A stretch of DNA of 64,000 nucleotides from an uncultured Candidatus Melainabacteria bacterium (GTDB lineage Bacteria; Cyanobacteriota; Vampirovibrionia; Gastranaerophilales; Gastranaerophilaceae). Shown piece after piece: positions 1-51,581 of the stretch (the first letter of the stretch is position 1; every line of letters begins with the position of its first letter). Under the pieces are notes generated by a model. It saw only the letters and a list, made by a program, of their open reading frames with translations. It was not told where the DNA came from and ran no database searches. Made by a program: the position numbers and the translations under genes. The stretch is taken from assembly GCA_947570135.1 (NCBI GenBank), contig CANOTP010000007.1:1-64000 (forward strand). The letters are read 5' to 3'.

Positions 1-107
1 AAATAATAAAATTTACAAAAAAATTGTAAAAATTTTGCTTAACAAATACTGTGTTTAATTGATAACTTTATACTGAAACGACTTGATATTATTGAAATCT
101 AGAGCAA
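1..107. repeat. Direct repeat, copy A (107 bp)
   Basis: Matches 1968-2074 with one mismatch (T at 55, C in the other copy). The repeat may extend left of the window. It holds a hairpin (TTTACAA 12-18, TTGTAAA 24-30) with a T-rich tract on the minus strand, and it matches the last 17 or so codons plus stop of the recombinase-fusion ORF that ends at 2022. So it looks like a duplicated gene 3' end with its terminator, the usual footprint of an element that integrates at a gene end. The attachment-site reading is inference. Confidence 0.85.
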
Positions 108-188
108 TACTATAAATAGGATAAAATACATAATGGGGAAATCTTGGACATTGTTTTGCTTCTAACTATCTCCACCAATAACAAGTAT

Positions 189-212
189 AGAGCGCAATAG
201 CGCTCTTTTTTA
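189..212 (+). terminator. Rho-independent terminator
   Basis: A 7-bp perfect stem (AGAGCGC 189-195, GCGCTCT 200-206) with an AATA loop is followed by a run of T. No gene ending just upstream is visible within the window. The rest of 1-427 holds only the repeat copy A and AT-rich sequence without a supportable gene. Confidence 0.7.
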
Positions 213-427
213 ATACCAATTTCCCTGCACAGTGCGGGCTTTAGCCAATTAAAGAGAATTTGCTCGAGTTGATTTTTGGAGAATTTAACCCCACTTGCAC
301 CCAAATTCTCTTGCGGTAAATAAAAAGAGTCCTTTTTGGAATATAATTTTAATATAGATTATTTTGAAAAATCTAAAGATGGAAATATTATTAAGAAATT
401 ATATTAGTTATATTTTATAATTTAGAT

Positions 428-676
428 ATGAACATAATTTATAAAATAATAAACATAATATTTGCAATATTTTTTACAATGATTATTGTTTCAATATTAT
501 CTGATACAGAGTATTTTAGGATTAATGGTACTGTATTTTTTAGATTTTTATCAATAATAACTTTAATAAGTCTGTGGCTGCCGTTTTTTATAAGAAAAAA
601 TATTTTTATAATATCAATTTGCATTTTAATATTTATTATCTATTTTGTTCTTTATATTTCCCATCCATTATTATAA
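428..676 (+). CDS. Small hydrophobic membrane protein, unknown
   Basis: 82 residues, almost entirely hydrophobic, with about three membrane-spanning stretches (residues 5-25, 38-55 and 60-80) and few charges. I do not recognise a family. There is no clear ribosome-binding site before the ATG. The stop lies 4 bp from the stop of the convergent MuF-motif gene at 680-1819, and both sit between the two 107-bp direct repeats, so they may have travelled together. A role as an immunity-type membrane protein for that neighbour is possible but unsupported, because immunity genes are normally co-directional. Confidence 0.45.
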   Translation: MNIIYKIINIIFAIFFTMIIVSILSDTEYFRINGTVFFRFLSIITLISLWLPFFIRKNIFIISICILIFIIYFVLYISHPLL

Positions 677-679
677 ATA

Positions 680-1819
680 TTATTCTTTTTTATAATCAGG
701 TAATAAATCATACATCAATATTGAACAATTACAATAAGGATACTTACGACCTCTTTCTCGTCCTAGTCTGTTTGCAACTTGATCTCTTTCCGAATCTGCA
801 ATTGCTTCTTCTATTGTGACTTTGTGAGATTTAGCATAAACATTATTCCATTGATCAAATTTTTCTTTTTGATCACTCAAAAAAATGGCAGATTTTTCAC
901 CAATAATACCCATTTCTTGTGTAGCCTCACAATTAGCTTTTGAATGATAGTACTTATCCATTTCAAATTCTCTTAAATGATACGCATGATACAAAAGTTC
1001 TACATAATTTGATATAAAAATTCTAAGTGTATTTAAAAATGCCCCAATAGGATTTAAGAGTCCTAAAACATCATGCAATAATGTTTGCCATTCAGCTTTT
1101 TTAGCATACATATATGCATAATCATTATCAACATTATTTTCACAATTTGGTAAGTGTTTTCCATATTCTTCACTTAAACTTTCCAGAGTATTATTTGCAT
1201 CTTGTATTAAATTCTGAACTCTTAATACATCATTTTCTAAATCTTGTACTTCTGTTTCAACTTCAGATAAAAGATTTTCAGTTTCTTTTATATTTATTTC
1301 AATTTCACTAATCATAGATTCTATTTCATTTATCGTGTCAAACTGTACCCCATCTCTGTTGGTTTCTTGAGAATAATTTTCGTCATTATTTTCTACAACT
1401 TCAACTGTACACTTGCAATTTGGGTGAGGTCGCTCCGGCACTTCGTCATAAAAATCAAAAACCTGTCCATCTAATTCTTTACATTTGTCACAAGTATGTT
1501 CGCTATTTTCAGAATGCCAAACATATTTGTCATAAGTTATTCCTGTTTTTAGAACTTTATCTTCAAGATCCTCTTTTTCTTCTTGTGCATCATTTATATA
1601 ATTATGTTCTTGCAAAGAGTTATATCTATATAAGGATTTACCAATATTTTGTAAATCTGTATACCCACTTAAAATTTTATTTTTATCTTTATTACTGAAT
1701 ACTGGGTTTGAATGATTTCTGAGCAGATTTTCTTGCGATTGTGATACTTTATCAAATGTTAATTCTAATTGCTCGTTATTTCGGAGTGCTTGTAAAATTT
1801 TTTCTTTTAATTTTGCCAT
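680..1819 (-). CDS. MuF/SPP1 gp7-motif protein with effector-like C-terminus
   Basis: 379 residues, preceded by a good AGGAG site. Residues about 95-140 read YVWHSENSEHTCDKCKELDG, then an HPNCKC motif, which resembles the C-terminal motif of phage head-morphogenesis (MuF/SPP1 gp7) proteins with cysteines that could bind metal. Residues about 170-230 form a coiled coil. The last 90 residues contain DKYYHSKANCEATQ, then GEKSAIFLSDQKEKFDQ, then DSERDQVANRLGRE and a closing CNC. I have seen this kind of pattern at the C-termini of polymorphic-toxin/Rhs-type proteins. No other phage structural gene is nearby. Best read as a standalone MuF-type effector or cargo protein; the activity is unknown. 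Confidence 0.6.
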   Translation of the reverse strand: MAKLKEKILQALRNNEQLELTFDKVSQSQENLLRNHSNPVFSNKDKNKILSGYTDLQNIGKSLYRYNSLQEHNYINDAQEEKEDLEDKVLKTGITYDKYVWHSENSEHTCDKCKELDGQVFDFYDEVPERPHPNCKCTVEVVENNDENYSQETNRDGVQFDTINEIESMISEIEINIKETENLLSEVETEVQDLENDVLRVQNLIQDANNTLESLSEEYGKHLPNCENNVDNDYAYMYAKKAEWQTLLHDVLGLLNPIGAFLNTLRIFISNYVELLYHAYHLREFEMDKYYHSKANCEATQEMGIIGEKSAIFLSDQKEKFDQWNNVYAKSHKVTIEEAIADSERDQVANRLGRERGRKYPYCNCSILMYDLLPDYKKE

Positions 1820-1967
1820 TTATATTTCTCCTGTAATGTAAATTTTTAAACATTCACATTATAAAAATTCTTACAATAGCCTACAAGTCAGTATTTTTAC
1901 GTAACCCAAAAGGGTAATTGACATGGAAAGTCAAGGTATATCATGGTTAACCTAATCAAATTAACAA

Positions 1968-2074
1968 AAATAATAAAATTTACAAAAAAATTGTAAAAAT
2001 TTTGCTTAACAAATACTGTGTTCAATTGATAACTTTATACTGAAACGACTTGATATTATTGAAATCTAGAGCAA
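1968..2074. repeat. Direct repeat, copy B (107 bp)
   Basis: Second copy of 1-107, offset by 1967 bp. It covers the 3' end, stop codon and terminator hairpin (1979-1997, T-rich side on the minus strand) of the ORF ending at 2022. Identity stops abruptly at 2074, inside that ORF. The two copies bracket the cassette with the MuF-motif gene. Confidence 0.85.
1971..1997 (-). terminator. Terminator after the recombinase-fusion ORF
   Basis: On the minus strand a TTTACAA/TTGTAAA stem with a 5-nt loop is followed by TTTTATTATTT. It lies 25 bp beyond the stop at 2022. The same hairpin is present in repeat copy A at 12-30. Confidence 0.55.
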
Positions 2075-3545
2075 ATGTTTCATCACTAAGTGTTGCGGCT
2101 AGAGCTTCATTAAGTTTCACATCTTGTTCCTCACCTGATAAACCTTTAATTTCCGTAATTTGTTCAGATGTTAAAATAACATTAGCCAATTCTAGTCTTG
2201 CTGCCTTATCATAAGATTTTACAGCTTCTAATTTTTTTGATTGTTCTGCTAATTTAGCTTGATATTCTTTTTGATATTTTTCATTAGTAGCAGATTTTGC
2301 AGATGAATTTGATGTTGCTGTAGGTACAACTTTTAATCCTGCAACCCCCGGAGCCTTAAGCATCGTATTACCTTTTTGTGAACACTGGGTTATTTTTATA
2401 TTAAATTTAAGGCTTATATTTTCATCTTTCGAAAAGCTAGTTTCTGATGTGATTAATTCGTAAAGTTTATTTTTTGATAGTAAAAGTTCCGTACAATTAT
2501 TATCAATAATTACTTTTGAGAGAACATTTCGCATAGAATCTCTATTGAATTCAAAATTTTGCAGGTTTGTTAAAAGTTTTGCTTGTAAGTTTAAAGGTTT
2601 GTTTGCAATAATTTTTTGCATAGATTTTGTATTATGGATAAAGGTATTTAATTCGTTGAAAACAAAATCTTCAATTTGTTTTGCGGGAATTCTTGTAAGG
2701 CATTGAGTTTTGTCATATTTTCCTTGTTTAATTCCTTGATTAATATAATAGTTGTAAATTTTGCCACCTCGTCCTGTACTTCTTGAGGGACTGAAGCAGT
2801 TACCTTTATCATCAAATATTTTTCCCTGCAACAAGGCATTTGACGATTTACGTTTTGTTGTAGGAGTGCATATACTATTAGCTTGTAAAAGTTTTTGTAC
2901 TTGCTCAAAGATTTCTGTTGATATTATAGCATCATGTTTACCTTCGTAAATGTTATTATCTTTGGTGATTTTTCCGATGTAAACCTTATTTGAAAGCAGG
3001 TGGTACAAATTTCCTTTTGAAAATTTTTTGTCAGATCTTGTATGAACTTCGTTTTCATCAAGGTAGAATTTTAATTTTGCAACAGATTTAAGTTCTAAAT
3101 ATTTTCCAAAAATTGTTTGGATTTTCCACGATTGTTCTGTATCTTCGACTAAAGCCCCATTATCTTTTTTATATCCTAAAGGAGTAGCTCCTGTTATCCA
3201 CAATCCTTTTTTAGCAGAAGCTGCAAACTTATCCCGAATTCTTTCACCTGTGACTTCTCGTTCAAACTGAGCAAAAGAAAGTAAAATATTCAATGTTAAT
3301 CGTCCCATTGAGGTTGTAGTGTTGAAATGTTGAGTTATTGAAACAAAGGATGTAGAATGGTTGTCAAAGACTTCAACAATTTTTGAAAAATCCATTAGAC
3401 TTCGTGTTAGCCTGTCAACTTTATAAACTACGACGATATCAACTTTATCTTGTTTAATGTCCTGTAAAAGTTGTTGAAATGCCGGTCTATTTAATGTTCC
3501 ACCGGAAAAACCACCATCATCATAATGTTTTGGAATTATTTCCCA
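2022..3545 (-). pseudogene. Serine recombinase, N-terminally truncated, with foreign C-terminal tail
   Basis: The reading frame is open from 3545; an ATG at 3395 is an internal Met. Residues after 3545 read WEIIPKHYDDGGFSGGTLNR, then VYKVDRLTRS, TQHFNTTTSMGRLTLN and QFEREVTGERI, the classic large serine recombinase (resolvase) catalytic-domain motifs. A Recombinase domain (GLWITGATPLGY) and a zinc-ribbon/coiled-coil region follow. About 60-75 N-terminal residues with the catalytic serine are missing, so it should be inactive. The frame joins a metallophosphoesterase gene at 3538-3545. The last 110 or so residues (from KAPGVAGLKVV, about 2360) are Ala/Lys/Glu-rich and unlike recombinases, suggesting in-frame fusion to another gene's 3' part. 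Confidence 0.85.
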
Positions 3546-3801
3546 ATGTCATAACCATTTCAATATCAGGTTTAGCTTCTTTCATTTTTATGTAGCTGTC
3601 CCTTTCAAGCTCATTTGGGTATATACCTTTAAAAATATCTCCGCAATTGAGTAATAATACGTTATCATCTTGAGGACTGTCTTGTAAAATTTTTGATAAA
3701 AACGCTCTTGTTTTTCGGGTCTTCTGATGTGAATCAGATATAGCATATATTTGAGTTGTTCCGTTGAAATTTGGATTATAGTTATTTGATGTTATTTTCA
3801 T
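3520..3801 (-). pseudogene. Metallophosphoesterase, N-terminal fragment
   Basis: 93 residues containing the first two metal-site motifs of calcineurin-like phosphoesterases: ISDSHQ (residues 21-26, D-x-H type) and NCGDIF (about 53-58). The third motif (GN-H-E/D) starts as TLGN and is then replaced by out-of-frame recombinase sequence, ending at a TGA. The break falls at 3538-3545, where ATTTCCCA suits both genes, suggesting microhomology-mediated joining. The remaining catalytic half is absent from the window, so the product cannot be a complete enzyme. Confidence 0.75.
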
Positions 3802-3888
3802 ATTTTAAATAATGTAGGTGAAGATTTTTTTTGCTATCGGTTTTGAATTGTTGCAATAAGAATTAGTTTTTGAATTGGAATTAAGAAA

Positions 3889-4341
3889 ATGTTAGGTAAC
3901 GAGTCTTTTGGTATTAAAACGATTTTGGTTCATGTTCATCTGTATTATTATGAACAGCTTGATTATTTTATTGAAAAATTAAAAAATATATCTCATTGTA
4001 AAAACAGTAATTATAATTATTTTCTTGCCGGAACAATGTTTCTTATGCGTGCAAATATTTTAGAAAAACTTGCAGGTTCGGACTTAAATGAAAGGGATTT
4101 TGATTTGGCTTCGGCAACAGGTTCTATTGGTACTTGTGCTCATGCTATAGAGAGAATTTTTTCTATATTAACCGATGATTGTGGGTATAAAGTCTATGGA
4201 ATAGAAGATAAATCTTTGAAAAAATATACCAATCCTGAGGGGATGAGCTTTTGGGAAAGAATTTTTTCCATAAGAAAATCTTCGGATAAAAGACATAAGA
4301 TAATTACAATTTTAGGGTTAAAAATTAAAATTAGACGATAA
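3889..4341 (+). pseudogene. Rhamnan synthesis F-like fragment with internal deletion
   Basis: 150 residues. The start (VHVHLYYYEQLDYFIEKLKNI) resembles the beginning of RgpF-type rhamnan synthesis domains. It passes directly into FLAGTMFLMRANILEKL and CAHAIERIFSIL, which belong to the far C-terminal part of that domain. The tail (IITILGLKIKIRR) is a common ending of cell-surface glycosyltransferases. The middle of the domain is missing without a frameshift, so this is probably a decayed glycan-assembly gene. No glycan cluster surrounds it. Confidence 0.6.
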
Positions 4342-9612: not shown

Positions 9613-9799
9613 AAGTATATTAGAAGAACAAATATCATATTATGAAGACTCTGTTAAATCACTTTATGTTTCTTTGGATAATATTATTGAAACAAGCGAA
9701 TTTGCATTGAGTGCTAATCCTTCATCTCAAGAATTAAAATTAGCAATCAAACAATTAAAAAACGCAAGAAAACTTTTAGATAAAATAAATTACCCCTAG
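9605..9799 (+). CDS. Small hypothetical helical protein, second of a coupled pair
   Basis: 64 residues, predicted mainly helical (SYYEDSVKSLYVSLDNIIE, then LKLAIKQLKNARKLLDKI). The ATG lies within the end of the previous gene, downstream of GGAGAAAAAAG. Its stop overlaps the stop of the convergent FlhA-like gene by 4 bp. Function unknown. Confidence 0.6.
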   Translation: MFKSILEEQISYYEDSVKSLYVSLDNIIETSEFALSANPSSQELKLAIKQLKNARKLLDKINYP

Positions 9800-11274
9800 A
9801 TTTCGCCCAGGCTGTCGATTTTGTATGTGCATCCGATTTCTTCATGTGCCAGAACCGTAATATCATTTAAGTATAATGATAACAGCGTGAAAAATATTTG
9901 GCGGTAATTCATTGGAACGATTAGTTTCGGGTTATGGATGCCTAATTTTTTTGATTTTTTGATAATCTTATCGGCAAGTTTTTCGGCAAATTCTCCGTCG
10001 ATAGAGATTATGCTGTCTTCGCCTTCGTCACACCCAAGAACTAAATCCGAGTATGTTTTTTCAGACAACTCAAACGCGCTGATTGTTTCGGAGTCTTCGT
10101 TTGTGTAAGCACTGCAAATCTGTCTTGATAAAGATAATCTGATTTTGTTTAAGATATCTGATTTTCCGCCTTCTTCCGCGAAATCGTTAATCTTTTCAAA
10201 AATATATGTGATATTTTTTATTGAAACTTTTTCTTTGATTAAGCTTGTCAAAAGGTACTTAACATCAGCGTAAGTCAATAAATCAGGAATGATGTTTTCG
10301 ATTAGAAATTCGTTTTCTTTTTCGACAACTTCCAAGTATTTATCGACATCTTCGTAATCAATCAAATCATCAACGTATTTAATTGCAACATATTCAAGCG
10401 CTTTTGCGATGTATTCTGACGGAGTAATCCCTTTTTGCCAGAAATCTTTTGCTTTGTCTTTTTCAATCCAGATAACTTTTCTGTCTGTGATTAAGTCTAT
10501 TCCGTCGATTGAGTTTTTGATTTTGTGTTCTGTGTGAAGCTCATCAGAATAAAACATCAGGTAATTCGGACAAACTCCTGCTCTAAAGACTTCCATTCCG
10601 CGGATTCTGATGCTGAACTCGCAAGAATTAAGGTTTTCATCGTCTTTAAACACAACTTTCGGGATAATATATCCTGAACGTTCTGTAAGTTTCAAGCGGG
10701 ATTTAACGGTTTCTGCAATAAGTTCTTCGCCTGAATTGTCGCGGTCTGAATCAACAAAACCTAAAAGTTCTTCGCTTAAATATATTGTAAGTTTTTCTTC
10801 ATGAAGTTTTGAATACATCAAATCAGGTGAGGTGGCTTTGTTTAGCTGGCATTTCAAATCTTCCAGTTCTTTTAAGCCTGCTGAAATTCTATCGTTAAGT
10901 TTTTTTCTTGAAACAGAAGCGGGAGCCTCTCCTTCAAGTTCTGCTTTAATTTTATTAATTCTTGATTTTTCGCGTCTGATTTTTGATTGAATTTCAAGAC
11001 ATTGTTCGTATTCGGTTAATTTTGGAGAAAGCATTTTTTCCATTTGGCTTTTGAAGTCAGAGATATTTATTATGTCGCTTTCCGAATGGTTGTCGTTTTT
11101 TGCCTCGCGCATAAAAATACAATTAAGTTGAGAACTTTCTTCTTCATCACCAACTTCGTGCATGCTGTATAATTCCCAGCCGTTCATTGACATTTCATTA
11201 AGAAGGTTTTGAAGTTCCTGAGCATTTTCTGCCGCGCAGGTTTTGATTACGTATTCCATTCTCTTTTTGAACAT
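9796..11274 (-). CDS. Soluble FlhA C-terminal-domain-like protein
   Basis: 492 residues with no membrane segment. The first 55 residues (MEYVIKTCAAENAQELQNLL, then MNGWELYSMHEV) look like a DUF4177-type fold. Residues 95-150 are coiled coil. From about 160 the protein follows the cytoplasmic domain of FlhA/LcrD export gates: LTIYLSEELLGFVDSD, SGYIIPKVVF, FSIRIRGMEVFRAG, ITPSEYIAKALEYVAIKY, LLTYADVKYLLTSLIKEKVS and the closing PMNYRQIFFTLL. Normal FlhA has eight membrane helices in front of this domain; here they are absent. No flagellar or injectisome gene is in the window. It may be a repurposed export-substrate or chaperone docking protein. The family match is by eye and should be tested by profile search. 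Confidence 0.7.
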   Translation of the reverse strand: MFKKRMEYVIKTCAAENAQELQNLLNEMSMNGWELYSMHEVGDEEESSQLNCIFMREAKNDNHSESDIINISDFKSQMEKMLSPKLTEYEQCLEIQSKIRREKSRINKIKAELEGEAPASVSRKKLNDRISAGLKELEDLKCQLNKATSPDLMYSKLHEEKLTIYLSEELLGFVDSDRDNSGEELIAETVKSRLKLTERSGYIIPKVVFKDDENLNSCEFSIRIRGMEVFRAGVCPNYLMFYSDELHTEHKIKNSIDGIDLITDRKVIWIEKDKAKDFWQKGITPSEYIAKALEYVAIKYVDDLIDYEDVDKYLEVVEKENEFLIENIIPDLLTYADVKYLLTSLIKEKVSIKNITYIFEKINDFAEEGGKSDILNKIRLSLSRQICSAYTNEDSETISAFELSEKTYSDLVLGCDEGEDSIISIDGEFAEKLADKIIKKSKKLGIHNPKLIVPMNYRQIFFTLLSLYLNDITVLAHEEIGCTYKIDSLGEI

Positions 11275-11278
11275 AATT

Positions 11279-12037
11279 TTATCCTTTTAATAATTTAATT
11301 GCTTCAATTGCGGTTTTAATAGCTTTTTCGGTATCGTGAACAACAGGATTATCAAGGTTTTGTTTTTCTCGTTCCTGGTTTGCAACTGTTAAAAATACCG
11401 AACCGACTTTGACATTTAAGTGGCTTGCAACGATAAATAATGCCGCAGATTCCATTTCAGAAGCTAGGCAACCTAAGCGTTTCCAGGCTTCCCATTTGTT
11501 TTGAAGTTCGTAGCTGACGGGCTTTGTTTCAGGTGAATGCTGACCGTAGAACGAATCCTTACACTGAACAACTCCTGTGTGATAAGTATAGTCTAAGCTT
11601 TTTGCGGCATTGACAAGTGCGTTTGTTATGTCAAGGTTAGCAACCGCGGGAAACTCAATCGGAGCGTATTCTTTACTTGTGCCTTCCATACGTATTGCAC
11701 CTGTTGCAACAACAATATCGCCGCCTTTAATGTTTAACTGCATACCGCCGCAGGTTCCCACACGAATAAAATTCTCTGCTCCAACTTTTACAAGTTCTTC
11801 CATTGCAATAGCGGCTGATGCACCGCCGATTCCTGTTGAAGTTACACTGACTTTTTCACCGTTAAGGTAACCTGTGTAAGTTACAAACTCGCGTCTGTCT
11901 GCGATAAGTTTCGGGTCATCAAAATATTGTGCAATTTTTTCACAACGTTTCGGGTCGCCCGGAAGTATGACGTATTTTCCTACGTCACCTTCCTTTAAAC
12001 CTATGTGATATTGAATACCGTTTTCTGAATAATTCAT
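11279..12037 (-). CDS. udp: Uridine phosphorylase
   Basis: 252 residues. N-terminal [20 protein letters not shown] is the phosphate-site motif, [17 protein letters not shown] and RVGTCGGMQ form the ribose/phosphate pocket, and [15 protein letters not shown] carries the EMES motif of nucleoside phosphorylase family 1. The QxxR pair expected in uridine phosphorylases appears near [11 protein letters not shown] and NQEREKQN. It cleaves uridine to uracil and ribose-1-phosphate for pyrimidine salvage. Its start abuts the end of the Skp-like gene and AAAGGAC precedes it. Confidence 0.9.
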
Positions 12038-12486
12038 TATTGTCCTTTTAATTTTTGAATAACCAAATCAGTGATATCCACACCACCTACAAATATAACC
12101 TGATCAGATACGATTGCATCAAGTTTTTGAGCAACCATTACTGCTTTTGCTGCTGTTTGAACCTGGTTCAGAATTTGTGTTTCTTTTGTGTTTCTCAGTT
12201 TAAACAAAGCTTCTTGTTTTGCGTTAAATTCTGTTGCGGTTTGAGTTTCAAAGTTTTGTTTTTTCAACGGTGTATCTAAAGATTTGTATTGTTTTTCTTT
12301 ATCAACCATATATTGTTGTAATTCCAAGCTTTTAGAATCAATTTCTTTTACAGCTTGTTGAGCTGCAGGGTAGTTTTCCAAAACTTTTTGGTAGTTGATA
12401 TAACCGACTTCTGCGAAAGCCTGGTTTCCTAAACCAACCATTAGTCCTGCTGCTAAAGTCAGAGCCATTAATTTTAAGTTTTTCAT
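12037..12486 (-). CDS. OmpH/Skp-like periplasmic chaperone
   Basis: 149 residues with a signal peptide ([19 protein letters not shown], residues 7-25). The mature part begins [19 protein letters not shown], the typical OmpH start, followed by a long helical hairpin and a short C-terminal strand region. Skp holds unfolded outer-membrane proteins for the BAM machine. It lies directly downstream of bamA, the classical neighbour order, with an AGGAGG site. Confidence 0.9.
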
Positions 12487-12515: not shown

Positions 12516-14534
12516 TTAGTAAATTAGGTCGCCGACACCGAATGTGAAGTAACCGTGTTTAGAGCCGTTATCACCCGGATTTGTAAGCGGAATACCATAG
12601 TCGATTGACAGAGGTCCCATTCCGGGGATGAATACTTTTAAGCCGACACCTGCTGATACTGCGTATTCAGGTCTGTCATACATTTTGTTTGAGACGGTTC
12701 CGTCAAATACTTTACCTGCATCAGCCCAAACGGTGAATCTGATGTTGTTTAAGAATGCAATTCTTGTTCTGTCCATAAACGGAATCGGTGTTGCAAATTC
12801 GGCAGAACCCATAACAAAGGCATTACCCGTACCAACACCACTCATTTTGAAACCTCTGACGGTATAAGGTCCGCCTAAACGGTATGCCATAACTTCAGGA
12901 ATATCTCCGTGGATTGCGCCGCCGCCTTTTGCGGTGAATGATAATGATGATTTCTTACCAACAGGAATGTATTGTTTAATCATACCCGTAAGTTTACCAT
13001 TTGTTTTATCAAATCCGTTTAAGCCGATATTTTCGTCAAATCTTAAACTTGCCATTGTTCCGCGTCTTGTGACGGTGCCTGAATCTCTTGTGTCATAAAT
13101 CAATGCAGGGCTTAATGACATGAACAATCCGCCTTCTAATTGCTTAGCACGCTCAGAAATCGGAATATTATACTTTTGGTACATGCTTAAGATGCCGTTA
13201 TAATCACCTTCTCTAACATCAATATTTTCAACACCTAAGCTGAATGTTGCGTTTGCGTGTCTGTTTTTCTTAAGTCTGTGAGCAACAGTCATTTCGCCGC
13301 CGAATCTTCTTTCGATTGCAAGCGGAACCTGGTATGAACCGAAGTCTCTAAAGAATAATCTGTTATTTAAAGAAGTATCTGCGTTAAAGAAATACGGTTT
13401 AAAGTAGCTTAATTCAGCCTGAATATTCATGTGGTCCTTAACGGATGAATCGTTAAGCATTACCCCTGTACCTGCCAAACCGGTTAAAGACAGTCTTTCG
13501 CATCTTCCACGGAAGTTGTTTTCAGAAATCCCCATTGAACCGAAAAGACCCGTTACCGTGTCAAGACCGCCGCCGACAGAAATACTTGCGGTTCTTTGTT
13601 CCTGAATTTTAATTGTAATATCGTAAGCGTCAGGAATTTCTTCACTCGGTTCGATTTCACGGGTTACATCTTTGAAGGCTTGAGTTGCGTAAAGTCTTAC
13701 CAAATCTTCTTTGACAAGGTTTTCGTTATAAATCATCCCCGGTTCTGTTAAGATATTACGGGCAATAATATAATCTTTGGTTTTTTCGTTACCTTCAATC
13801 ATAATTTTGTCAATAATACCTTCTTTAATACTTATATTAATTGTTCCGTCAGGGTCATCAGTTACAGAATCTATTCTTGCTAAAATGTATCCTTTGGAGT
13901 TGTAAAGTTCCTGAACTTGCGCAATTGCAATGTTTAATTGAGCGATATTTTGAGGTTTACCTTTCATGTCAGTAAATGCTGATATGATTTCTTCTGTTGA
14001 AACAACTGAATTTCCCTCAATTGTAAAATCTTTGACGGGAATATTTTCTTCCAATACGATTTTAACCGTAACTGTTCCGTCTGCGTTTTTAGACGGGATG
14101 GCTTTCATTTTTTCGGTAAAATATCCTGTTTCATAGATTGTTTTAAGGTCTGTTTGCAATAAATTTCTGGAATACTCACCGCCTTGACGCATTTGCATTT
14201 TTTCTCTTAGTTCGTGTTCGGAGATAGAGTTTAAACCGTAAAATTCAATATCTTTAATAAGTTTTTTTTCTTTATCAATAGGGTCGTTGGATGTTGTTTT
14301 CGGTAAAGAAAAGTCTGTCGGATAATTTCCTGTTGTATTAACCTGCGGGGTATCAGAATCATGGGTTGTATATTTGTCAAAGATAGTGTTAGCATAGTTT
14401 GTGTTATTTTGCACTGCGTCTTCAGTTAAGCCCATTGAACCCCACGCATCATCTACGGCAAAGGCTCCTGTTTGGGTTGTCATTGCTATAACTGCAGCTA
14501 ATACTAAATGTTCGGTTATCTTTTTGAAATTCAA
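12516..14534 (-). CDS. bamA: Outer membrane assembly factor BamA (Omp85)
   Basis: 672 residues starting with TTG behind AAGGAATT. Signal peptide ends near residue 27 (TQTGAFA). Three POTRA domains span about 90-315 (first begins IKDIEFYGLNSISEHELRE, last ends near AYDITIKIQEQ), fewer than the five of proteobacteria and in line with cyanobacterial Omp85. The 16-strand barrel follows, with the conserved VRGF motif (YTVRGFKMSG, about 562) and terminal FGVGDLIY. It inserts beta-barrel proteins into the outer membrane and proves a diderm envelope. Confidence 0.96.
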   Translation of the reverse strand: MNFKKITEHLVLAAVIAMTTQTGAFAVDDAWGSMGLTEDAVQNNTNYANTIFDKYTTHDSDTPQVNTTGNYPTDFSLPKTTSNDPIDKEKKLIKDIEFYGLNSISEHELREKMQMRQGGEYSRNLLQTDLKTIYETGYFTEKMKAIPSKNADGTVTVKIVLEENIPVKDFTIEGNSVVSTEEIISAFTDMKGKPQNIAQLNIAIAQVQELYNSKGYILARIDSVTDDPDGTINISIKEGIIDKIMIEGNEKTKDYIIARNILTEPGMIYNENLVKEDLVRLYATQAFKDVTREIEPSEEIPDAYDITIKIQEQRTASISVGGGLDTVTGLFGSMGISENNFRGRCERLSLTGLAGTGVMLNDSSVKDHMNIQAELSYFKPYFFNADTSLNNRLFFRDFGSYQVPLAIERRFGGEMTVAHRLKKNRHANATFSLGVENIDVREGDYNGILSMYQKYNIPISERAKQLEGGLFMSLSPALIYDTRDSGTVTRRGTMASLRFDENIGLNGFDKTNGKLTGMIKQYIPVGKKSSLSFTAKGGGAIHGDIPEVMAYRLGGPYTVRGFKMSGVGTGNAFVMGSAEFATPIPFMDRTRIAFLNNIRFTVWADAGKVFDGTVSNKMYDRPEYAVSAGVGLKVFIPGMGPLSIDYGIPLTNPGDNGSKHGYFTFGVGDLIY

Positions 14535-40879: not shown

Positions 40880-41227
40880 ATGGCATTTTTAGCATTAGCA
40901 GCTCAAAGGAGCGTACTAAATCTACAAAAAAACTTTTTACAACTTCAGTATTTATCAATTTCAAACCAAAACCAGGCAGCGTTAGCGCAAATGTCTTCAA
41001 TTGAAAAATACTATTCCGGTATGAAAGACAAAAACGGTCAAACACCTGATTATACTGAAGATGCGGATTACATTTATTATGAAGAATTAAGCAATCAGTT
41101 AGAAACAGAAAAAGATTCAATTGATTCACAAATGACTGCAATTGATAATGAATTATCAAGTTTGAAAACACTTGTAAACAACAGTATCAAGTCAAGCTGT
41201 ACATTAAACCTTGCAAGTGGCGGTTAA
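40880..41227 (+). CDS. Small coiled-coil protein, unknown
   Basis: 115 residues, AAGGAGATGAGATT before the ATG. Residues 1-40 are Ala/Leu/Gln-rich helix, the last 50 a coiled coil (LETEKDSIDSQMTAIDNELS). This last part is similar to the end of the 609-residue protein at 49752 (IENKEQTLDLKMKNLDTEIS). No signal peptide. The two may share a C-terminal export or assembly element. Confidence 0.7.
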   Translation: MAFLALAAQRSVLNLQKNFLQLQYLSISNQNQAALAQMSSIEKYYSGMKDKNGQTPDYTEDADYIYYEELSNQLETEKDSIDSQMTAIDNELSSLKTLVNNSIKSSCTLNLASGG

Positions 41228-49751: not shown

Positions 49752-51581
49752 ATGGGATTAGCAGCATCACAAGCAAGATTGTTGACCATAACATCCAGAA
49801 AAGCTGATTGCGAGTTTCAGTCAATGACTTTATCTCACCAAAAGCTATCACTTTCTCGTGACATGGAAGCTGTATCTACGGCTTATCAGAATGCTTTAAA
49901 TTTAACTAAATTAGTTTATGATTATCAGGGTCAAAACAGTGCTGAATTGGATTTATCTTACGGGCTGTTAATGACACCTTCTATTTATAATGATTATTAT
50001 CCGAAATTAGTTACCGATAATAAAAACAGAGTTATTTTAAACGGTGCATTGGCAACAGCAGCAAGAGCAGCGGGTATTCCTGCAGAAGGTTTACTTGGTA
50101 CTCCGTCATCTGATGTTCGTAACAGATTTATCCAAGCACTTGCAACAACTAATATTATCAGTCCGAGTACTGCTGCTTCAATACAGTCAGTACCTTATAA
50201 AAATACTTTAGGACTTGGTAATACCATTTCTGTTTCAGCAACTACTGAAGATTTGTCTTATAATGATTTGTTAAATCGAGTCAAAGCTGTAGCAACTGAT
50301 ACTACCCAGGATTACGGCATGGAATTAGGCGGTAATGAAACGGATACTTATAAACGTTCTGATGACAAAAATAGGTGTTCTCAAGAAGAGTTGTACATCA
50401 ATGGTGTACGGGTTAAAAAGGCTGAGGAATGGTCTAATCAAGGAGATAATGGTTCTAAAGTACCTCCGGAAGGTTCAGGATATGCAGTGTCATTATATGA
50501 CTTGTTAACTTCTGAAGTTGTATTACATTATGATACTTGTAAATCGGCTCAAACTCCTGTTATAGAACTTGCTCAAATGCAAAAAGAAATTGCAGGAACA
50601 GGTGGTGTATTAGATTGGATGTATGATCAATTTGCGGCAGTTTTGGGCGGTGCAAATAAAAATGATACAGCATTACAATATGCATATAATCAATTGTTTG
50701 ATTTAATTATGCCTAATAAAGACCTGCAAGAATTGGGAACTGCTTGTAATAATAGTAATTATACACGTAGTAATTATGATGAAATTACACAGTATAATGA
50801 TAATAACAAAAAATATGATGAAGGCGGAGACGGTATCTTTAATGATATTTATACAAGAGTCGATATGGTCGGTACTCTTGTTGAATGGGGTGATGTCCGC
50901 GGTAATGATGTCAGAAAACACGCAAATAATTACTTAGGCTTTGTTTTTTCTGCAAAAAATAAAGATGGCGGTAATGACGGTAAAGATCATACTGCAGCAT
51001 CAATCAATATTTCTAACCTTGCAGATGCATTTTTAACATCTTATGTTCAATATATGCAAGATGTTGATAAGTCTGAATATAACTGGGATAAAGGTGCTAT
51101 TTCAAGTTCAAATCTTTTTAACGGAAACACTGACAAAGATTTTGTATTCACTGTTCCGTCAGAAGCTGAGATTGACAATGGTGACAGTGATATGAACGCA
51201 GCGTTTTATGATACTATGTTTAACATGATTTGTACAAAAGGCTGGGTTGAAAACGCACAAATTGATAGTAAAGAATATATGGGCGAAATGCTCAAAAACG
51301 GTATGGCATACATATCTTCAATAAGTGATGACGGTTTTTATTATCAAAGCGTTTATTCTAATGAAAAATTAGTAAGAGAAGTTGCTGATGATGAAGCTAT
51401 AGCAAGAGCTGAAGCACAATATAACACCGAAAAAACACGTATCGAAAATAAAGAACAAACTTTAGACTTGAAGATGAAAAATCTTGATACAGAGATTTCT
51501 TCACTGACTCAGGAATATGAAACAGTAAAATCTTTGGTAACAAAATCTGTTGAAAAATCATTCAAGCGATACGAGGCTTAA
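49752..51581 (+). CDS. Large unknown protein with conserved N-module and coiled-coil end
   Basis: 609 residues. N-terminus MGLAASQARLLTITSRKADC with a helical stretch to 60; a central region rich in Asn/Asp/Tyr; C-terminal coiled coil from about 550 (ENKEQTLDLKMKNLDTEISS). No signal peptide, no membrane helix. The helical ends with a variable middle are the plan of flagellin-like or type III-exported proteins, but no sequence match is claimed. Shares the C-terminal motif with the 115-residue protein at 40880. AAAGGAAAG precedes the start. Confidence 0.75.
   Translation: MGLAASQARLLTITSRKADCEFQSMTLSHQKLSLSRDMEAVSTAYQNALNLTKLVYDYQGQNSAELDLSYGLLMTPSIYNDYYPKLVTDNKNRVILNGALATAARAAGIPAEGLLGTPSSDVRNRFIQALATTNIISPSTAASIQSVPYKNTLGLGNTISVSATTEDLSYNDLLNRVKAVATDTTQDYGMELGGNETDTYKRSDDKNRCSQEELYINGVRVKKAEEWSNQGDNGSKVPPEGSGYAVSLYDLLTSEVVLHYDTCKSAQTPVIELAQMQKEIAGTGGVLDWMYDQFAAVLGGANKNDTALQYAYNQLFDLIMPNKDLQELGTACNNSNYTRSNYDEITQYNDNNKKYDEGGDGIFNDIYTRVDMVGTLVEWGDVRGNDVRKHANNYLGFVFSAKNKDGGNDGKDHTAASINISNLADAFLTSYVQYMQDVDKSEYNWDKGAISSSNLFNGNTDKDFVFTVPSEAEIDNGDSDMNAAFYDTMFNMICTKGWVENAQIDSKEYMGEMLKNGMAYISSISDDGFYYQSVYSNEKLVREVADDEAIARAEAQYNTEKTRIENKEQTLDLKMKNLDTEISSLTQEYETVKSLVTKSVEKSFKRYEA

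What the first reader, a model, noticed from the sequence alone, without database searches (positions are those of the whole stretch)
9796..11274. FlhA cytoplasmic domain without its membrane part, plus a DUF4177-like head
Export-gate motifs run over about 330 residues, but the eight membrane helices that every functional FlhA has are replaced by a small N-terminal domain and coiled coil. In a window with no flagellar or injectisome gene, this looks like a domain co-opted for another job, such as a docking platform for exported proteins. The unknown proteins at 40880 and 49752, with helical ends and no signal peptides, would be possible clients.
Basis: partly seen in the sequence, partly recalled or inferred. 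Interest (0 to 1): 0.72.

Follow-up and report, generated by a model that had tools for sequence, protein, structure and literature searches.

The report
Soluble copy of a secretion gate
A family of gut bacteria related to cyanobacteria, the strain here without flagella, all carry a free-floating copy of the inner half of a protein-export gate, fused to a new front end; the copy has lost the known cargo-docking surfaces but kept the ring-forming parts, so it is more likely a partner or regulator of the bacteria's own non-flagellar export machine than a docking platform.

Summary
ORF 9796-11274(-), 492 aa, has the complete four-domain FlhA cytoplasmic fold (residues ~153-492, Z 31 to a solved FlhA ring) and no membrane half. 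A small beta-alpha-beta-beta head and a coiled coil replace it. This genome (Gastranaerophilales, "Melainabacteria") has no flagellin, but it encodes a full-length gate (FlhA2) plus FliF, FliG-like, FliH, FliI, FliM/N, FliO-P-Q-R and four rod-like proteins, partly 12 kb past the window end. The short gene ("FlhA-S") is present in 102 of 103 order genomes inspected and in none outside the order. It is one clade on the FlhA2 side of the tree and under strong purifying selection. D1, D3 and the ring linker are kept, but D4 and the chaperone-binding residues are lost. That argues against a classical docking platform and for a soluble partner or regulator of the FlhA2 export ring (inferred, not shown). 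The 49752 'client' belongs to a multicopy family with flagellin-like conserved ends, found in all 116 sampled genomes of FlhA2-bearing families and in none of the 78 others: linked to the secretion system, not to FlhA-S specifically.

The parts
9796..11274 (-). FlhA-S: soluble FlhA cytoplasmic-domain paralog, 492 aa
11101..11274 (-). N-terminal head, residues 1-58, beta-alpha-beta-beta, DUF4177/Sp36-like; among the best conserved parts of the family
11017..11100 (-). flexible stretch, residues 59-86, low confidence
10834..11016 (-). helical hairpin / coiled coil, residues 87-147
10804..10836 (-). linker motif ATSPDxMYSKL, residues 147-157, counterpart of NPNRMYERL in FlhA2; aromatic at the position of Salmonella Trp-354 kept
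10567..10803 (-). FlhA domain D1 (first part), residues 158-236, with GYXLI replaced by SEELL
10414..10566 (-). FlhA domain D2, residues 237-287; dimple residue F459 equivalent lost (T490 equivalent follows in the next part)
10123..10413 (-). FlhA D1 end and D3, residues 288-384, conserved
9799..10122 (-). FlhA domain D4, residues 385-492, relaxed; FlhA2 motif CQRTELGTMFLLNP absent
11279..12037 (-). purine/uridine phosphorylase gene directly upstream, in the same operon; neighbour in 79 of 80 loci
12037..12486 (-). OmpH/Skp-like chaperone gene, operon neighbour in a large sub-clade
12516..14534 (-). BamA (Omp85) gene, operon neighbour in a large sub-clade
49752..51581 (+). MG-ASQAR family protein, 609 aa, conserved helical ends; likely exported or axial protein of the T3SS (inferred)
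40880..41227 (+). 115-aa protein weakly related to the minimal 109-aa MG-ASQAR forms
   Evidence: E 6.8e-5

Best explanation
FlhA-S is a soluble paralog of the cytoplasmic domain of FlhA2, the export gate of a non-flagellar, rod-type T3SS that Gastranaerophilales keep even when they have no flagellin. It arose once, at or before the base of the order, probably by duplication of the FlhA2 linker plus C-domain. A small DUF4177-like head and a coiled coil took the place of the eight membrane helices. Shown: fold, paralogy, distribution, purifying selection, kept D1/D3/linker, lost D4 and dimple. Inferred: it works at the FlhA2 ring by the shared linker and D1/D3 contacts, as a mixed-ring subunit, a cap or a ring-assembly regulator, and its head brings in a partner or regulates access. 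It does not dock chaperone-cargo complexes itself in the known ways.
For: FlhA-C fold over D1-D4. One clade, 100/100, separated from flagellar FlhA by a 100/100 branch and on the FlhA2 side. Its profile scores FlhA2 of the order at 175-197 bits and flagellar FlhA at about 100-125 bits. Linker motif with the aromatic at the Trp-354 position shared with FlhA2 and not with flagellar FlhA of this class. Identity to FlhA2: D1 0.34 and D3 0.35, as high as FlhA2 to flagellar FlhA; D4 0.18 against 0.33 (difference -0.145, 95% CI -0.217 to -0.076). Linker, D1 and D3 contacts build the ring in Salmonella (PMC8166844). Separate mini-paralogs (G044, G016) keep only coil, linker, D1 and D3 and lack D2 and D4. 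The genome has FliF/FliG-like/FliH/FlhA2, FliI, FliM/N, FliO-P-Q-R and rod proteins without flagellin. The rod, FliF2 and FlhA2 genes are contiguous in G012. Omega about 0.04.
Against: No physical or genetic interaction is shown. The gene is not in a T3SS operon: in most of the first family it sits behind BamA/OmpH/phosphorylase, and elsewhere it stands alone. FlhA2 works without it in other families and in G134. The T3SS is universal in the order, so co-occurrence within the order carries no information. The very long stem (2.64) leaves the exact parent uncertain. Two genomes (G044, G121) have FlhA-S but no FlhA2 or FliF in the assembly, which may be gaps.
Confidence: 0.5

Rival explanations
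1. Full co-option: FlhA-S no longer works with any T3SS. It is a cytosolic oligomeric scaffold with another task, for example linked to outer-membrane protein biogenesis or nucleotide salvage, whose genes it travels with.
For: Directly behind BamA-OmpH-phosphorylase in 79 of 80 nearest loci; not in T3SS operons; docking features lost; long stem.
Against: The BamA/OmpH link is missing in G006, G012, G009, G016, G075, G104 and G090, and S stands alone there. It is never found in a family without an FlhA2-type T3SS. Ring-forming linker, D1 and D3 are kept.
Confidence: 0.27
2. Second docking platform: FlhA-S binds chaperone-cargo complexes in the cytosol and hands them to the gate.
For: All four domains are present; Asp-456 equivalent kept in 45 of 46; a large family of probable cargo exists.
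Against: Flagellar-type dimple residues F459, T490 and H491 replaced; the injectisome-type D3-D4 site (PMC5932034) involves the relaxed domain, and the FlhA2 D4 motif is gone. The cargo family also occurs without FlhA-S.
Confidence: 0.13
3. Spare part: FlhA-S can stand in for a damaged or cleaved FlhA2 C-domain, as the FlhB-C homologue HP1575 does in Helicobacter (Wand et al. 2006).
For: Same anatomy: soluble paralog of a gate's cytoplasmic domain (HP1575 title).
Against: Sequence has diverged at the known functional sites, so simple substitution is unlikely; it has its own conserved head.
Confidence: 0.06
4. Decaying duplicate or annotation artefact without function.
For: None found.
Against: Omega about 0.04 over the gene; 102 of 103 order genomes keep it; open frames without stops.
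Confidence: 0.01

Closest known systems
FlhA / SctV cytoplasmic domain (FHIPEP, PF00771)
   Same: Complete D1-D4 fold, Z 31.2 to the Vibrio FlhA-C ring; ring linker motif of FlhA2 type.
   Different: No membrane domain; GYXLI, chaperone dimple and FlhA2 D4 motif lost; extra head and coiled coil; not in a T3SS operon.
Helicobacter pylori HP1575 (soluble FlhB C-domain homologue; Wand et al. 2006, J Bacteriol 188:7531, title seen)
   Same: Soluble paralog of the cytoplasmic domain of an export-gate protein.
   Different: FlhB, not FlhA; HP1575 can replace the native domain, whereas FlhA-S has lost the native functional sites and has an added head.
Non-flagellated Lysobacter enzymogenes flagellar-type T3SS (PMC7277350)
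   Same: Bacterium without flagella keeps a working flagellar-type export apparatus with a new role.
   Different: No soluble FlhA-C paralog is mentioned in its abstract.
Chlamydia FlhA/FliI/FliF orthologs (PMC2830194)
   Same: Flagellar gate proteins kept in a bacterium without flagella.
   Different: Reported as orthologs of FlhA, FliI and FliF; not described as a soluble C-domain copy with a new head (abstract only).
Partial flagellar gene sets of Melainabacteria (PMC3787301, PMC5877343)
   Same: Same lineage; 13 flagellum-related genes shared by four genomes, among them two called flhA; one of the two may be FlhA-S (not tested).
   Different: Read there as flagella or incomplete flagella; truncation, paralogy and an order-wide non-flagellar system are not described in the passages read.

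Membership tests
FlhA/SctV export gate | C-terminal cytoplasmic D1-D4 fold | tested here: met
FlhA/SctV export gate | N-terminal membrane domain of eight helices | tested here: not met
   profile 316-653 only; no hydrophobic segment
FlhA/SctV export gate | NCBIfam FlhA or SctV equivalog score | tested here: not met
   145 of 772 bits and 86 of 692 bits
FlhA/SctV export gate | Flagellar chaperone dimple D456, F459, T490 | tested here: not met
   D456 kept; F459 to T/S, T490 mostly to R/K/H
FlhA/SctV export gate | GYXLI motif | tested here: not met
   SEELL in FlhA-S: G to S 46/46, Y to E 45/46; FlhA2 keeps G but not Y
FlhA/SctV export gate | Nonameric ring | not testable with these tools
   only indirect: linker, D1 and D3 conserved
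FlhA/SctV export gate | Gene in a T3SS or flagellar operon | tested here: not met
DUF4177 (PF13783) head | Score above Pfam cut-off | tested here: inconclusive
   15.9 of 25 bits; 17 of 29 relatives match weakly, best E 0.008
Flagellum, as identity of the genome's T3SS | Flagellin | tested here: not met
   none in G000
Flagellum, as identity of the genome's T3SS | Export gate, ATPase complex, MS-ring, C-ring and rod proteins | tested here: met
   FlhB not searched
Injectisome (NF-T3SS) | Secretin ring and needle subunit | not tested
   not searched; MG-ASQAR 109-aa proteins are a possible needle-like family, no needle among sequence matches to solved structures

The most novel reading that the evidence does not exclude
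Gastranaerophilales carry a distinct, non-motile, rod-type T3SS (FlhA2 system) that exports a large variable family of flagellin-like MG-ASQAR proteins to the cell surface or host. FlhA-S is a new kind of export-gate component: a soluble FlhA-C subunit that joins or caps the FlhA2 ring through linker, D1 and D3 and uses its head to control which proteins pass.
Probability: 0.3. Interest if true: 0.83.

Novelty: new variant of a known kind. Interest (0 to 1): 0.62.

Why it matters
FlhA is known as a membrane-anchored ring. An order-wide soluble paralog with kept ring contacts and lost docking sites would be a natural dissection of which FlhA-C surfaces do what. It also points to an overlooked secretion system in common animal-gut bacteria, and to a concrete list of probable exported proteins to test.

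Tried and rejected
Viral contigs: no relative of FlhA-S. Structure from 29 FlhA-S rows alone was poor (pLDDT 65.5); adding FlhA2 and flagellar C-domains gave 82.6. BamA/OmpH operon as a functional clue: conserved in the 80 nearest loci but not across the order. Proximity to T3SS genes: FlhA-S lies 5-7 kb from the FliPQR cluster in G014, G106 and G090, and about 13-14 kb from FliI in G001 and G040, but the intervening genes differ; judged weak and not used. MG-ASQAR profile against solved structures gave only coiled-coil matches, no needle, hook or flagellin. Fold of the head alone was not searched; the whole-model search does not test it. Literature: no description of a soluble FlhA paralog or a Gastranaerophilales non-flagellar T3SS found in the open library; subscription papers are mostly not covered.

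Full report
Observation. The ORF at 9796-11274(-) codes for 492 residues. Pfam FHIPEP matches residues 145-481 with E 5e-45 but only positions 316-653 of 657, and NCBIfam FlhA reaches 145 of the required 772 bits. A model built with 50 relatives has mean pLDDT 82.6. It superposes on solved FlhA/SctV cytoplasmic domains over residues ~153-492 (7amy, Z 31.2, 329 residues, 2.6 A; Foldseek E 1.6e-22). All four domains D1-D4 are present. The N-terminal 150 residues hold no membrane segment. They form a beta-alpha-beta-beta head, which resembles DUF4177/Sp36 only weakly, a flexible stretch and a helical hairpin. I call the protein FlhA-S.

Genome context. The window is part of a 1.9 Mb, 99.9% complete genome whose nearest named relatives are gut Candidatus Gastranaerophilales. 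The genome has a second, full-length FlhA ('FlhA2'). FlhA2 lies in an operon FliF - 333-aa protein - FliH - FlhA; the 333-aa protein has only a weak MgtE_N match, and I call it FliG-like from its place and from the known MgtE_N/FliG resemblance (own knowledge). Elsewhere lie FliM/N-like - FliO - FliP - FliQ - FliR and FliI with a T3SS ATPase C-domain. On the same contig as the window, about 12 kb past its end, are FlgC-like, FlgB-like and two FlgE/F/G-like rod proteins. In G012 the rod proteins, FliF, FliG-like, FliH and FlhA2 are contiguous, so they belong together. No flagellin was found in G000. FlhB and secretins were not searched. Di Rienzi et al. list 13 flagellum-related genes shared by four Melainabacteria, including flhB and two flhA, although MEL.A1 lacks a full flagellar set (PMC3787301).

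Distribution. All 146 order genomes have FHIPEP proteins in score classes: about 870 bits (flagellar, some genera), about 720 bits (FlhA2) and the short form. Full-length FlhA-S was found in 98 of 98 order genomes of the class sample and in four of five more order genomes checked singly, G134 being the exception. Outside the order only 700-residue gates match along the FlhA part. Within the nearest 80 loci FlhA-S follows the phosphorylase / OmpH / BamA genes (phosphorylase in 79 of 80), but in deeper branches it stands alone. Thus the operon is not a general clue to function.

Origin. A tree of C-domains puts FlhA-S in one clade (100/100) on the FlhA2 side of a 100/100 branch away from flagellar FlhA, on a very long stem. 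FlhA-S shares with FlhA2 a linker motif (ATSPDxMYSKL / NPNRMYERL) that flagellar FlhA of this class lacks. Its profile scores FlhA2 of the order at 175-197 bits and flagellar FlhA at about 100-125 bits. The simplest reading is duplication of linker plus C-domain of an FlhA2-type gate before the order diversified. The long stem leaves the exact parent open.

Which surfaces are kept. In Salmonella the linker (E351, W354, D356) binds D1 and D3 of the next subunit and builds the ring, and the D456/F459/T490 dimple binds chaperone-cargo complexes (PMC8166844; PMC5932034). Injectisome gates seem to use a D3-D4 site instead (PMC5932034). In FlhA-S the aromatic at the W354 position is kept (Y/F 46 of 46), D456 is kept, but F459 is T/S, T490 is mostly R/K/H, H491 is A, and GYXLI is SEELL. 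The FlhA2 D4 motif CQRTELGTMFLLNP, nearly invariant in 15 FlhA2, is absent. Identity to FlhA2 is 0.34 in D1 and 0.35 in D3, the same as between FlhA2 and flagellar FlhA, but 0.18 against 0.33 in D4 (difference -0.145, CI -0.217 to -0.076). The head is as conserved across deep FlhA-S branches (0.44) as D1 and D3. Omega is about 0.04 over the whole gene, so this is not decay. Mini-paralogs in G044 and G016 keep only coil, linker, D1 and D3, the same part that is best kept in FlhA-S.

Mechanism. I infer that FlhA-S acts at the FlhA2 ring through linker, D1 and D3, as a mixed subunit, a cap or an assembly regulator, and that the head binds a partner. Shown are fold, paralogy, distribution, selection and the pattern of kept and lost surfaces. 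The interaction itself is inferred. The docking-platform idea is weakened because both known docking regions are altered. Full co-option outside secretion cannot be excluded.

The proposed clients. The 49752 protein (609 aa) has no Pfam family. It belongs to a multicopy family, at least seven clear members in this genome, with a conserved N-terminus (MGxxASQARxLxLTARK), a conserved C-terminal helix (ending like KNIExTFKTF), a variable middle and no signal peptide-like segment. Minimal members are 109 aa. The 115-aa protein at 40880 matches these weakly (E 6.8e-5). The family was found in 116 of 194 class genomes: all members of the sampled families with FlhA2, and none of the 78 others, which where tested have only another FlhA type or no T3SS gate match. 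At family level this is 5 of 5 against 0 of 5 (Fisher 0.008); the per-genome figure is inflated by relatedness. This architecture, as in flagellins, and the distribution make them likely exported or axial proteins of the FlhA2 system. They also occur where FlhA-S is absent (G134; families f9, f14, f15), so they are not specific clients of FlhA-S.

Verdict. A real, conserved variant that I found described nowhere in the open library: a soluble FlhA-C paralog tied by descent to a non-flagellar T3SS. Membership in the FlhA gate family proper fails on the membrane domain and on functional motifs; 'works with the gate' stays the best-supported view at about even odds.

Noticed in passing
window 49752-51581(+), 40880-41227(+); L125:90-2183, L083:6615-7676, L168, L169, L170, L171: MG-ASQAR family: conserved helical ends around a variable middle, many copies per genome, found only in families with the FlhA2-type T3SS; probable secreted or axial proteins.
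   Followed up: partly
L126:6146-7036(+) and L127:5972-6979(+): Mini FlhA-C paralogs (296 and 335 aa) keeping coil, linker, D1 and D3 but lacking D2 and D4; the second has a hydrophobic segment pair in front.
   Followed up: partly
G000 contig C7, 76.4-80.1 kb (L130:12873-16110): Rod-like genes (FlgC-, FlgB-, two FlgE/F/G-like) in a genome without flagellin, next to a DUF3137 protein, about 12 kb past the window end.
   Followed up: partly
L083:14082-19579, L125:7822-11528, L131:9368-10714: Dispersed but complete-looking non-flagellar T3SS core (FliF, FliG-like, FliH, FlhA2; FliM/N, FliO-P-Q-R; FliI) in an organism without flagellin.
   Followed up: yes
G134 (contig C15; L129): Only inspected order genome with FlhA2 but no FlhA-S: a natural knock-out for comparison.
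   Followed up: no
G044, G121: Have FlhA-S and FliP/FliR but no FliF or FlhA2 in the assembly; gap or real loss not decided.
   Followed up: no
window 1-4000: Low G+C (0.28) stretch with a serine recombinase (2022-3395) and a phage Mu F-like protein (680-1819): likely a mobile element.
   Followed up: no
L081: Record titled Heliobacteriaceae bacterium carries a 57% identical FlhA-S; probably a mislabelled Gastranaerophilales genome.
   Followed up: no
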